Shown: positions 11,874-15,885 of the stretch, piece after piece | Numbering within the stretch: position 1 is the first letter of the stretch | How the letters are laid out: each line of letters opens with the position of its first letter | Assembly (NCBI RefSeq): GCF_004309355.1 | Contig: NZ_BJCC01000008.1 | Location: 102,877 to 166,876, forward strand | Direction: 5' to 3' | Length of the DNA: 64,000 bases | Origin: Enterococcus florum | GTDB lineage: Bacteria; Bacillota; Bacilli; Lactobacillales; Enterococcaceae | Notes under the pieces: model-generated | Databases searched by the model: none | Told to the model about the DNA's origin: nothing | The model's input: only the letters and a program-made list of their open reading frames with translations | Made by a program: the position numbers and the translations under genes

Positions 11874-12581
11874 ATGGACGAGACGATGTTGCTGATAGCT
11901 GGAACGATCGGAGCGGGCAAGACGGCCTTGACCAATAAGCTGTCTTTGGAAATGAATTCGAGACCGTTTTATGAAAATGTGGATGACAATGAAGTGCTGC
12001 CGCTGTTTTACTCGAATCCGGAGAAATATACTTTTTTGCTTCAGGTTTTCTTTTTGAATAAACGTTTTCTAGCGATGAAAGATGCGTTGAAACAAAAGGA
12101 CAATGTTCTGGATCGCTCAATCTATGAAGACAGTCTGCTGTTTCACTTGAATGCCGATCTGGGGCGGGTGACTCAGGACGAGGTGCAGCAGTACGACAAC
12201 CTGCTGGATACGATGCTGAAGGAACTGGAAAGTGTAGCTCCGCTGAAAAGACCGGATCTGCTAGTCCACATCAAGGTCTCCTTTGAGGTGATGCTAGAGC
12301 GGATCGAAAAGCGCGGCCGCGACTACGAGCAGGTGGCAACGAATCCGGATCTTCAAGACTATTATCGGATGGTGACGCAGCGCTATGATCAGTGGTATGA
12401 CAGCTTTGATTTGTGTCCGAAGATTCAGATTGATGGCGATCGTTATGATTTTGTCGCCGACCCGCAGGCAGCCGAAACGGTATTGGGTCAAATCAAAGCA
12501 AAAACGCAGGAGCTGAACCAAATGGAAATTCAACGTCCCAGCTACTGTACTGCTCGAAAGATCGAAAAAGGGATTTTTTGA
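11874..12581 (+). CDS. Deoxynucleoside kinase (dNK/dGK-dAK family)
   Basis: The frame opens at ATG 11874 with a second possible ATG at 11886 (MLLIAGTIGAGKT); neither has an ideal ribosome binding site. The product has P-loop GTIGAGKTALT, the substrate-site motif YENVDDNEVLPLFY, the DRS motif LDRSIYEDSLLF and the lid Arg-rich segment IEKRGRDYE. These match the lactobacillary deoxyadenosine/deoxyguanosine kinases, which phosphorylate salvaged deoxynucleosides in the cytoplasm. It is apparently monocistronic. Family assignment is firm; substrate preference is not determined. Confidence 0.92.
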   Translation: MDETMLLIAGTIGAGKTALTNKLSLEMNSRPFYENVDDNEVLPLFYSNPEKYTFLLQVFFLNKRFLAMKDALKQKDNVLDRSIYEDSLLFHLNADLGRVTQDEVQQYDNLLDTMLKELESVAPLKRPDLLVHIKVSFEVMLERIEKRGRDYEQVATNPDLQDYYRMVTQRYDQWYDSFDLCPKIQIDGDRYDFVADPQAAETVLGQIKAKTQELNQMEIQRPSYCTARKIEKGIF

Positions 12582-12732
12582 TCGTTTTCTTTTTTCACTA
12601 TAAAAGAATAGTATCGTTCAGGTCATCGATTTGGCCAGTTAATTACAGCAAATCTTCAGCCAAACTCTTGTGGAAGTATATCGTGTTGGTGTCGGTTTCA
12701 TGTTATACTAAATTCAACGAATTCAAGAAAAT

Positions 12733-12871
12733 AGGAGTGAAGCTGAGATGAGGTTAATGATTGAAAATACTTCGTACAAAGTCTTTTAGGGCAAATTTGT
12801 ACGAAGGCAAACGATTTTTTGCCCGTTAGACTTTGTCTTTTACCATTTTAAAAGACAAAGGAGAAAGAAAC
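12733..12871 (+). promoter_or_regulatory. Leader with translated peptide and competing stems (translational attenuator)
   Basis: Four segments can pair in exclusive ways. A:B is CTTCGTACAAA (12770-12780) with TTTGTACGAAG (12796-12806). C:D is CTTTGTCTTTTA (12831-12842) with TAAAAGACAAAG (12849-12860), a perfect 12-bp stem that takes up the first half of the downstream Shine-Dalgarno AAAGGAG (12857-12863). A:C is ACAAAGTCT (12776-12784) with AGACTTTGT (12828-12836), reinforced by GGGC/GCCC (12789-12792/12821-12824), and would free the Shine-Dalgarno. Segment A lies inside the leader ORF, so ribosome position would decide the fold. The layout resembles erm-type attenuation; the inducer is unknown. 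Confidence 0.65.
12748..12789 (+). CDS. Leader peptide MRLMIENTSYKVF
   Basis: AGGAG at 12733-12737 precedes ATG 12748; the 13-codon ORF ends at TAG 12787-12789. Its last codons (Thr-Ser-Tyr-Lys-Val-Phe) form the 5' arm of two competing stems. It has no run of a single amino acid codon, so control by drug- or ligand-induced stalling is more likely than amino-acid starvation. Confidence 0.55.
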   Translation: MRLMIENTSYKVF

Positions 12872-13354
12872 ATGACGTATGAAATGGACCTGTCCGCATT
12901 TGCTGAGACATTCTCGGAAAAGCCGTTAGTGATCGGCGGTTTGGCGATGGACTATTATGGTATTCGGCCTCGGGGAAAAGATATCGATCTGATTGTGACT
13001 GGCGAGGATTTTGCTCGGATTTCGGAGCAGCATCCTGGCAGACAAAGAGACAAATGGGGCGATTTGATTTTGACACTAGGGGAATATGAAATTTTACGCA
13101 GTATTTTTCGGTTTGATTATGCCTTCTTTTCAGAGGGGGCGATCGAACGGGAATACTGCAAAATCATCTCTTTGGAAAAACTATTTTTCATGAAGGTTTT
13201 GGCCTATGAAAATCAGCCAGAGGTAGAAAAGCATACACAGGATTATCAATTAATGCTGACCCATTTTTTTGAAAACTTCCAAAATAGGGAGTATGTGGAG
13301 ACAATGAATCAGCATATTGAAGATTATCTGAATGCGCCAGATGGAACGATCTAA
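12872..13354 (+). CDS. Nucleotidyltransferase-fold protein
   Basis: The ATG at 12872 has AAAGGAG eight bases upstream. The 160-residue protein opens with a nucleotidyltransferase core: VIGGLAMDYYGIR, then GKDIDLIV (the DxD pair) near residue 35, and a possible third acidic residue in FRFDYAFF near residue 83. Similar folds occur in lincosamide/aminoglycoside nucleotidyltransferases and in AbiEii/MNT-type toxins. No antitoxin partner is adjacent. The elaborate attenuator upstream hints at induction by a translation inhibitor, but resistance is not shown by the sequence. Confidence 0.65.
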   Translation: MTYEMDLSAFAETFSEKPLVIGGLAMDYYGIRPRGKDIDLIVTGEDFARISEQHPGRQRDKWGDLILTLGEYEILRSIFRFDYAFFSEGAIEREYCKIISLEKLFFMKVLAYENQPEVEKHTQDYQLMLTHFFENFQNREYVETMNQHIEDYLNAPDGTI

Positions 13355-13362
13355 AGGTGCGG

Positions 13363-13403
13363 CCCGAACAACATCTCTTGCTTGATGTTGTTCGGGTCTT
13401 TTT
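13363..13403 (+). terminator. Strong intrinsic terminator of the nucleotidyltransferase gene
   Basis: CCCGAACAACATC (13363-13375) pairs perfectly with GATGTTGTTCGGG (13384-13396), followed by TCTTTTT. Confidence 0.9.
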
Positions 13404-13460: not shown

Positions 13461-13937
13461 ATGTTTCATTTGATGTTGATACTTCTGCCATTGCTTTTTT
13501 TGGTCATGATTTTATCGATCCTCTTATTTGGAGCGACCATGCTTTTGATCAGTTTATTTGGTGGGGCTGCGACGGTACTGTGGATCAAAAATCGAACTGC
13601 AAAAAGGCTGCTCTTCATCGGCTTTGCGATCGTGTCGTTAATCGGTGGAATGTGCTTGTTTCCCTTTGTAGGGATCTACGCGAATCTAACGATGCCGCTT
13701 TTTCGGACTATCACTGGCATCTTGCTCAGCCTGATCGTCTTTTTGGCGATGGGTGGAATTAAGATTTCGATGACAGTTCAGAACAAAACGGGAAGAACAT
13801 TCTTGTGTATTTTGTATGCTCTAGCCGGGGGGGGGGGGAGCAGCTTTATTGGCGATTTTTTTCTATTTGCGGAAATAGGAAGCTGGAAAGATTCAATGGG
13901 CCATCTTGATTGCCAGCAGTTGCTTCAGCAGGTTTAG
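13461..13937 (+). CDS. Small polytopic membrane protein with a G12 tract that shifts its frame
   Basis: The ATG at 13461 follows GAGGAGGG. Four hydrophobic segments fill residues 1-125. At 13827-13838 a run of twelve G encodes Gly residues. With twelve G the frame runs on as SSFIGDFFLFAEIG to 13937 and overlaps the convergent gene. With eleven G it would read GGGGAALLAIFFYLRK and stop at 13878, a natural fourth membrane segment with a basic end. I infer the eleven-G frame is the functional one and the present state is a frameshifted variant. The family is unknown. Confidence 0.6.
   Translation: MFHLMLILLPLLFLVMILSILLFGATMLLISLFGGAATVLWIKNRTAKRLLFIGFAIVSLIGGMCLFPFVGIYANLTMPLFRTITGILLSLIVFLAMGGIKISMTVQNKTGRTFLCILYALAGGGGSSFIGDFFLFAEIGSWKDSMGHLDCQQLLQQV
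13827..13838 (+). repeat. Homopolymer of twelve G inside a coding region
   Basis: Twelve consecutive G within the membrane-protein gene. Such runs are rare in low-GC Firmicutes and are prone to slipped-strand length change. The three possible frames differ in the C-terminus of the protein. Confidence 0.9.
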
Positions 13938-15411: not shown

Positions 15412-15885
15412 GTGTTAAGCGGTGTTTCAGTGGACATCCAGAAAGGAGAATTCGTGTCAGTCATGAGCCCTTCCGGTTCAGAAAAGTTGACCCTGCTGTA
15501 TGTATTGAACAGGATGGACACGATCGATCAGGGCAATGTCCAATTTATGGAACAGGAGTTGACGGCCTGTAAAGAAACCGAACTGGCGGATTTGCGTCGT
15601 CCGCACATGGGCTTTGTGTTTCAGTAGCCGATCTTTCTCAAAATTTTGACGATTCTGGGCTATATTATTTTACCAGTGATACGGAGACAACCGCAAAAAG
15701 TCTCTGAACTGACGGCACAAGCACAGGAGCTGCTGAAAAAAACCGGCATCGAGGATCTTGCGATGTGCATGGTGACACACGATGCCAAGGTGGCCGTTCA
15801 AAGTGAACGGACATTGTTTATGAAGGACGGCGAAATCGTGGATGAGCTGAAGCTTGCCAAGTTTGTTGGAAACGATAGCGATTAA
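15412..15885 (+). pseudogene. ABC transporter ATP-binding protein remnant (LolD/MacB-like)
   Basis: Two frames carry pieces of one NBD. The first (15412-15627) has a damaged Walker A, SPSGSEKLTLL in place of GPSGSGKSTLL, runs to the Q-loop MGFVFQ and stops at TAG. The second (15646-15885) continues with the helical segment and jumps straight to the H-loop MVTHDAKVA, lacking the LSGGQ signature and Walker B. The start codon region is also lost. It is clearly non-functional. Such NBDs normally pair with a FtsX-like permease, which is absent here. Confidence 0.85.

What the first reader, a model, noticed from the sequence alone, without database searches (positions are those of the whole stretch)
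12733..12871. Leader peptide and mutually exclusive stems controlling a nucleotidyltransferase-like gene
A 13-codon ORF with its own ribosome binding site overlaps the 5' arm of two alternative stems. One alternative lets a perfect 12-bp stem hide part of the downstream Shine-Dalgarno; the other frees it. This is the architecture of antibiotic-inducible translational attenuators (erm and relatives), here in front of a protein with a nucleotidyltransferase DxD motif. It could be an inducible resistance or stress system that has not been described.
Basis: partly seen in the sequence, partly recalled or inferred. Interest (0 to 1): 0.75.

Follow-up and report, generated by a model that had tools for sequence, protein, structure and literature searches.

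The report
Shared ribosome-controlled RNA switch
In front of an uncharacterised gene in an Enterococcus relative lies a tiny leader gene whose RNA is predicted to fold in two mutually exclusive ways, and because the same layout stands before two other unrelated gene families in distant bacteria, it is likely a shared switch that would turn genes on when ribosomes stall.

Summary
Window 12748-12789 is a 13-codon ORF (MRLMIENTSYKVF) with its own ribosome site; its 3' half is arm 1 of an 11-bp hairpin and also pairs with the strand that otherwise closes a 12-bp stem at the downstream Shine-Dalgarno. Shuffled leaders never matched all three pairings (0 of 300 for each of 14 leaders). The same element precedes NTase homologues in two other Enterococcus species and Clostridium oryzae, Mef-like MFS genes (11 intact loci) and small Mor-like HTH genes (8 intact loci, one family of Bacilli). 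Hairpin 1 and the anti-sequester helix covary. In 14 NTase/MFS leaders the ORF behaves like coding sequence; in the HTH class the motif is read in other frames. Best reading: a translational attenuator family of erm-like logic but different topology, in which a ribosome stalled early in the leader would free the gene's Shine-Dalgarno. Stalling, inducer and gene function are untested. Equilibrium folding does not show the switch in the window's own leader; the model needs ordered, co-transcriptional folding. No Rfam family matched in the window or nine member loci. The NTase model resembles TM1012, MenT1, ANT(2'')-Ia and LnuA, so resistance is one option among several.

The parts
12733..12737 (+). 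Shine-Dalgarno AGGAG of the leader ORF
   Evidence: sequence; an SD-like purine run is present upstream of 14 of 14 distinct NTase/MFS leaders, the weakest being AAGG
12748..12789 (+). leader ORF MRLMIENTSYKVF plus stop
   Evidence: coding-like substitution pattern over 14 leaders
12770..12780 (+). arm 1 of hairpin H1
   Evidence: covariation
12796..12806 (+). arm 2 of hairpin H1
   Evidence: covariation
12778..12784 (+). arm 1b, 5' strand of the alternative (anti-sequester) helix, part a
12789..12795 (+). H1 loop segment GGGCAAA, 5' strand of the alternative helix, part b
12818..12824 (+). pre-3 segment TTTGCCC, 3' strand of the alternative helix, part b
12828..12834 (+). arm 3 (AGACTTT), 3' strand of the alternative helix, part a; overlaps the 5' strand of H3
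12831..12842 (+). 5' strand of the 12-bp SD-sequestering stem H3
   Evidence: swap test
12849..12860 (+). 3' strand of H3 (arm 4), reaching into the SD
12859..12863 (+). Shine-Dalgarno AGGAG of the NTase gene
12872..13354 (+). nucleotidyltransferase-fold gene, 160 aa, GG..DxD motif
13361..13398 (+). intrinsic-terminator-like hairpin after the gene
   Evidence: 1 found, 0.6 expected in shuffles

Best explanation
The leader is likely a ribosome-controlled translational attenuator: a short ORF with its own Shine-Dalgarno overlaps RNA arms that are predicted to form either a hairpin plus a stem closing the gene's Shine-Dalgarno, or one long alternative helix that would leave it open, and the same layout stands before NTase, Mef-like MFS and Mor-like HTH genes. 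Proposed steps. (1) With free translation or none, H1 (arm 1:arm 2) would form first because it is local, and arm 3 would later pair with arm 4, which carries the Shine-Dalgarno. (2) A ribosome held early in the leader (about codon 4-5 in the P site) would cover the 5' half of arm 1, abolish H1 and leave arm 1b and the loop free. (3) These would pair with pre-3 and arm 3 before arm 4 is made, so the gene is translated. In four of 14 ribosome-free folds (Monoglobus, G871, G965, G982) arm 1 also pairs directly with the Shine-Dalgarno, so a ribosome on arm 1 would open both locks. Shown: the ORF, the pairings beyond chance, covariation and recurrence. Inferred: stalling, folding order, inducer and gene function. 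That the inducers are drugs which arrest soon after initiation is a guess.
For: The three pairings together beat all dinucleotide shuffles in 14 of 14 leaders (0 of 300 each); singly, shuffles as good were at most 1 (H1), 7 (ALT) and 16 (H3) of 300. Swap test, own against cross-species duplexes, 14 leaders: H1 -16.7 against -11.5, loop:pre-3 -11.5 against -7.7, H3 -16.8 against -12.9 kcal/mol, each p about 5e-5; loop:pre-3 again in MFS alone (p 1.5e-4) and HTH alone (p 1e-4). H1: 96.8% of cells paired, 14 cells with two-sided changes against 3.7 in shuffles (0 of 500), slid controls 21-47% paired. Nascent RNA ending at arm 3 with nt 1-25 covered folds into the alternative helix in 14 of 14 leaders (13 of them drawn). 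The distance from start codon to arm is gap-free in 15 of 15 NTase/MFS leaders. Frame 0 of codons 2-7: mean BLOSUM 1.12 and no stops; other frames -0.47 and -0.10 with 7 and 5 stops; 0 of 2000 column shuffles reach it.
Against: Equilibrium folding gives no clean switch. Mean SD openness over 14 leaders is 0.33 without a ribosome, 0.26 with one on codon 1, 0.47 at codons 4-5 and still 0.43 at all later codons, so it does not single out an early stall; window 0.60 to 0.72, the other three NTase leaders stay at 0.20-0.23. Without a ribosome the nascent RNA already favours the alternative helix in 10 of 14, and in full-length RNA it is the best fold in 5 of 14 whether or not nt 1-25 are covered; the window keeps H3 in both. 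So the model needs H1 to form first. NTase leaders alone (n 4): no swap test significant (p 0.26-1.0); 1b:3 is not significant within a class; H3 not significant in the 8 HTH leaders. In one search the number of pairs with two-sided changes (4) is reached by 80 of 500 shuffles. Arm 2 and the test positions were chosen by looking, and relatedness is not corrected. In the HTH class the motif is read in other frames, so there is no common nascent peptide. L005, L006, L007 and L015, also NTase homologues, lack the leader. T in codon 3 was asked for by the pattern for 7 MFS loci. No drug data.
Confidence: 0.68

Rival explanations
1. A ligand- or protein-binding RNA (riboswitch-like or protein-bound leader): the conserved core GCUCYAUGCAARGUCU and its pairings are sensed by something other than the ribosome, and the ORF is incidental or secondary.
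For: The nucleotide core is kept while the reading frame over it changes in the HTH class. H1, loop:pre-3 and H3 are RNA features that do not need translation.
Against: A start codon with an SD-like run and an open frame through arm 1 is found in 14 of 14 distinct NTase/MFS leaders, with a coding-like substitution pattern. No Rfam family reaches its gathering score in the window or in nine loci scanned. The loop differs in length and sequence between members, unlike a usual ligand pocket (inference).
Confidence: 0.17
2. General translation-state sensor: any slowed or absent ribosome on the leader, including amino-acid or initiation limits, sets the structure; no drug-specific nascent-peptide arrest is involved. 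(A sub-case of the best explanation, so the odds overlap.)
For: The HTH class has leaders of different length, start position and frame over the same arms. Codons 9-10 of NTase/MFS leaders change non-synonymously where the stem demands it. Masking at any codon from 4 on gives similar SD openness.
Against: The NTase/MFS leaders keep a fixed run of 12 codons with M-[KRLI]-[LI] at the start ([LI] is partly imposed by the pattern), and codons 2-7 are more alike than column shuffles allow.
Confidence: 0.3
3. Fortuitous secondary structure, or a transcription terminator remnant, with no regulatory role.
For: AT-rich intergenic DNA often folds; some R1/R2 hits looked like ordinary terminator hairpins (L019, L021, L091).
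Against: Shuffle, swap and covariation tests and recurrence before three gene families. No terminator-like site is listed between leader and gene.
Confidence: 0.05

Closest known systems
erm-type translational attenuators (ermC and relatives)
   Same: Leader ORF, gene's ribosome site closed by RNA structure, opening by a ribosome stalled on the leader (PMC5418344, passages read).
   Different: The alternative here pairs arm 1b and the H1 loop with pre-3 and arm 3 instead of arm 2 with arm 3; the genes are not 23S methylases; no drug response is known. The erm arm scheme is recalled, not taken from a call.
uORF attenuators of ARE-ABCF genes (CplR MR[I/M], VmlR2 MK[L/Q], VmlR MIN, LsaA MAGN)
   Same: Short uORFs, two of which begin M-[RK], and for cplR an SD held in a stem until a ribosome stalls on the uORF (PMC10201436, passages read).
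   Different: Those uORF consensuses have 3-4 residues, and cplR has a terminator with a U run; here the ORF is at least 12 codons in the NTase/MFS class, no terminator lies between leader and gene in the window, and the genes differ.
uORFC-6-1 motif upstream of hflX (PMC8632094, section 25 read)
   Same: A structured RNA with covariation placed downstream of a uORF start codon in Firmicutes.
   Different: Conserved Arg-Leu-Arg peptide and mainly hflX as the target gene; not compared at sequence level here.
Antibiotic and toxin nucleotidyltransferases: ANT(2'')-Ia, LnuA, TM1012, MenT1 (for the gene product)
   Different: 14-20% sequence identity in those four rows; no Pfam or NCBIfam family at cut-off; the substrate is unknown.

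Membership tests
erm-type translational attenuator | Leader ORF with its own Shine-Dalgarno overlapping the 5' arm of the stems | tested here: met
erm-type translational attenuator | Mutually exclusive stems, one of which sequesters the gene's Shine-Dalgarno | tested here: met
   predicted, beyond chance and covarying over the family; in the window only part of the SD is closed
erm-type translational attenuator | Alternative pairing is arm 2 with arm 3 (scheme recalled) | tested here: not met
   nascent folds with the leader masked pair arm 1b with arm 3 in 14 of 14
erm-type translational attenuator | Drug-dependent ribosome stall on the leader induces expression | not testable with these tools
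   needs toeprinting and reporters
ARE-ABCF uORF attenuators | Downstream ABC-F gene | tested here: not met
   window gene is an NTase fold; the one MFS and one HTH protein scanned are MFS and weakly Mor
ARE-ABCF uORF attenuators | Short uORF stalled soon after initiation | not testable with these tools
   M-[KRLI]-[LI] starts are compatible
Any Rfam 15 family | Match at gathering score | tested here: not met
   0 matches in the window and 0 in nine member loci
Intrinsic transcription attenuator | Terminator hairpin with U run between leader and gene | tested here: not met
   window only: one terminator-like site, after the gene
Antibiotic nucleotidyltransferase (ANT(2'')/Lnu) | NTase fold with GG and DxD | tested here: met
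   AF2 model pLDDT 88.5, Foldseek and VIA-align matches, invariant G22 G23 D37 D39 in 30 sequences
Antibiotic nucleotidyltransferase (ANT(2'')/Lnu) | Sequence membership in a named resistance family | tested here: not met
   no NCBIfam match up to E 1 and no Pfam match at cut-off; DUF2204 only weakly, best E 0.0092 in 13 of 30 homologues
Antibiotic nucleotidyltransferase (ANT(2'')/Lnu) | Modifies an antibiotic | not testable with these tools
   needs enzyme assay

The most novel reading that the evidence does not exclude
An undescribed family of ribosome-operated RNA switches, found in Bacilli and Clostridia, uses the leader hairpin's own loop as the anti-sequester strand and keeps its RNA core (GCUCYAUGCAARGUCU) while the leader frame over it changes. 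It would act as a frame-independent ribosome-stall sensor that has been put before efflux pumps, an orphan NTase and small HTH regulators, and would mark these genes as a hidden translation-stress regulon.
Probability: 0.43. Interest if true: 0.85.

Novelty: new variant of a known kind. Interest (0 to 1): 0.72.

Why it matters
A leader shared by unrelated genes points to a common trigger. If the trigger is a ribosome-targeting drug, the orphan NTase and HTH families become candidate inducible resistance or stress genes, and the element is a search handle for more of them. The frame change over a kept RNA core would also allow a direct test of whether such switches read the nascent peptide or only the ribosome's position.

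Tried and rejected
Single-query search of genome contigs, viral contigs with A1, plasmids and phages by tblastn with the C. oryzae NTase and by blastn with the E. pallens leader (both), the G432 leader (plasmids only) and the L085 leader (both) gave no member; the 8 phage hits are 22-29 base matches. Viral pattern scans: 10 stretches, judged chance on inspection, and 0. A profile of A1 matched no solved chain by sequence.

Pattern and model hits that I rejected: 14 of 398 genomes matched; 2 are intact members (G000, G432), 1 a remnant (G316), 5 were read and rejected, 6 (L039, L040, L042, L045, L046, L048) were judged from the matched string only., 18 of 148 genomes (20 places): 2 MFS, 1 MFS remnant, 2 HTH, 15 rejected., 10 of 80 genomes: 6 MFS members, 4 rejected. 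The backwards control patterns also match often, so a pattern match alone was never counted; 4 of 60, one (L019) rejected; 3 of 398, L021 rejected; 3 of 295, L032 rejected; 4 of 40, one remnant, three rejected; 8 of 40 genomes (9 places): G807 MFS, G316 remnant, 6 HTH, and L091 rejected. L008-L011 are short weak matches and were dropped.

Macrolide +x+ arrest motif (recalled): not present in the window leader. Phenicol-type arrest at Ala/Ser/Thr near codon 8-9 (recalled): such a ribosome would cover arm 1b, so it fits the proposed order badly. Peptide conservation of SYKV/APCKV: it can follow from the RNA arms, so I do not use it.

Papers: 10 searches; in the titles and abstract starts listed I saw nothing on this element (one search listed 10 of 29). 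Passages seen in PMC5418344, PMC10201436 and PMC6429828; section 25 of PMC8632094 read whole; a term search of PMC11109978 found no occurrence. Subscription papers are not held.

On checking, two statements of my draft were mended: 'several' ribosome-free nascent folds is 10 of 14, and the four leaders with arm 1 on the SD are Monoglobus, G871, G965 and G982.

Full report
What is there. At 12748 a 13-codon ORF, MRLMIENTSYKVF, follows AGGAG. Its 3' half forms an 11-bp hairpin H1 (12770-12780:12796-12806); a 12-bp stem H3 (12831-12842:12849-12860) reaches the Shine-Dalgarno of the gene at 12872. The alternative helix pairs 12778-12784 with 12828-12834 and the H1 loop 12789-12795 with 12818-12824. 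The fold beats 200 of 200 shuffles.

Same leader in relatives. Of eight NTase loci with DNA, four have the leader: window, Enterococcus sp. 665A (MRLVIVIASYKVCG), E. pallens (MRLVIAAASYKVCGQFV), Clostridium oryzae (MKLAVDYASYKVF). L005, L006, L007 and L015 have none. In the genus 3 of 20 genomes carry the gene.

Same leader before other genes. A covariance model from these four (R1) found a leader MLLINVSAPCKV before an MFS gene in G432. Its protein, the only one of the class scanned, fits TIGR00900 (E 7.4e-49) and Mef(A) (E 4.8e-31), both far below the cut-offs. More followed: G624, Subdoligranulum and Monoglobus plasmid-collection records found by protein, and pattern hits G807, G871, G952, G965, G935, G982, G943: 11 intact MFS loci; G432 and G624 share the same leader up to arm 2 and one was dropped from the tests. 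Two remnants keep the leader without an intact MFS gene beside it: L038, with only a C-terminal piece, and L079. A third class appeared in one unnamed family of Bacilli (f10; I take it for Paenibacillaceae, which no call says): 8 intact loci (L062, L069, L085-L090) before an HTH gene of 87-91 aa (weak Pfam Mor match, E 1.4e-4, below cut-off, tested on L062 only). The gene of L089 starts with GTG, not ATG.

Is it RNA structure? For 14 distinct NTase/MFS leaders the species' own arms pair better than arms swapped between species for H1, loop:pre-3 and H3 (each p about 5e-5); MFS alone keeps this for all three (p 7e-4, 1.5e-4, 5e-5). Four NTase leaders alone are too few (p 0.26, 0.58, 0.42). HTH alone: loop:pre-3 p 1e-4, H1 p 0.018, H3 p 0.42. 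Arm 1b:arm 3 gives p 0.0013 over the 14 but nothing within a class. H1 has two-sided changes at 4 of 9 pairs and in 14 cells (3.7 in shuffles, 0 of 500), though the number of such pairs is reached by 80 of 500 shuffles. Limits: arm 2 was picked as the best partner of arm 1, the shuffle test used positions found by looking, and neither test corrects for relatedness.

Is the ORF read? In 14 leaders codons 2-7 are gap-free, without stops in frame 0, and more alike as amino acids than 2000 column shuffles; the other frames have 7 and 5 stops. The shuffle breaks relatedness, and the search pattern asked for T in codon 3 for 7 MFS loci, so this is support, not proof. In the HTH class the motif lies in other frames: by the script's top-ranked candidate 7 of 8 read it as S-M-Q and one (L089) as L-Y-A-K; L086 has a further candidate in the L-H-A-K frame behind a G-rich stretch, and its top-ranked one has no SD. 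So the shared thing is the RNA core.

How it may work. Folding nascent RNA that ends at arm 3, with nt 1-25 of the leader covered, gives the alternative helix in 14 of 14 leaders, but without a ribosome also in 10 of 14. With arm 4 present it is the best fold in 5 of 14, masked or not; the window keeps H3 both ways. Mean SD openness is 0.33 free, 0.26 with a ribosome on codon 1, 0.47 at codons 4-5 and 0.43 further on, with little effect in NTase leaders. The switch therefore rests on folding order (H1 first), which is inferred. In four of 14 free folds arm 1 pairs with the SD itself.

Known or new. No Rfam match in the window or nine member loci. Closest in logic are erm leaders (PMC5418344) and ARE-ABCF uORFs such as CplR MR[I/M] and VmlR2 MK[L/Q] (PMC10201436; passages); uORFC-6-1 before hflX is another structured uORF (PMC8632094). 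I saw this element in none of the ten search listings, but only open papers are held. I rate it a new variant of translational attenuation; the recurrence and the pairings are firm, the drug claim is open.

Noticed in passing
L062, L069, L085-L090 (about 1400-1800): Small Mor-like HTH genes in one family of Bacilli carry the same RNA element, often with an extra inner hairpin AACAACGGCGGTTGTT in the H1 loop; the role of these HTH proteins is unknown.
   Followed up: partly
L038:1501-1760 and L079:1501-1620: Leader elements with a conserved leader ORF but no intact MFS gene beside them (L038 keeps only a C-terminal piece).
   Followed up: partly
window 13827-13838: A run of 12 G inside a small membrane-protein-like ORF (13461-13937); possible slippage site or assembly doubt.
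   Followed up: no
window 15412-15885: ABC-transporter-ATPase-like sequence (by eye) split over two ORFs; looks like a decayed gene.
   Followed up: no
window 11874-12581: Deoxynucleoside kinase gene (Pfam dNK E 6e-39) next upstream of the leader, same strand.
   Followed up: partly
window 12701-12709: TGTTATACT looks by eye like an extended -10 before the leader; the promoter scan did not list it.
   Followed up: no
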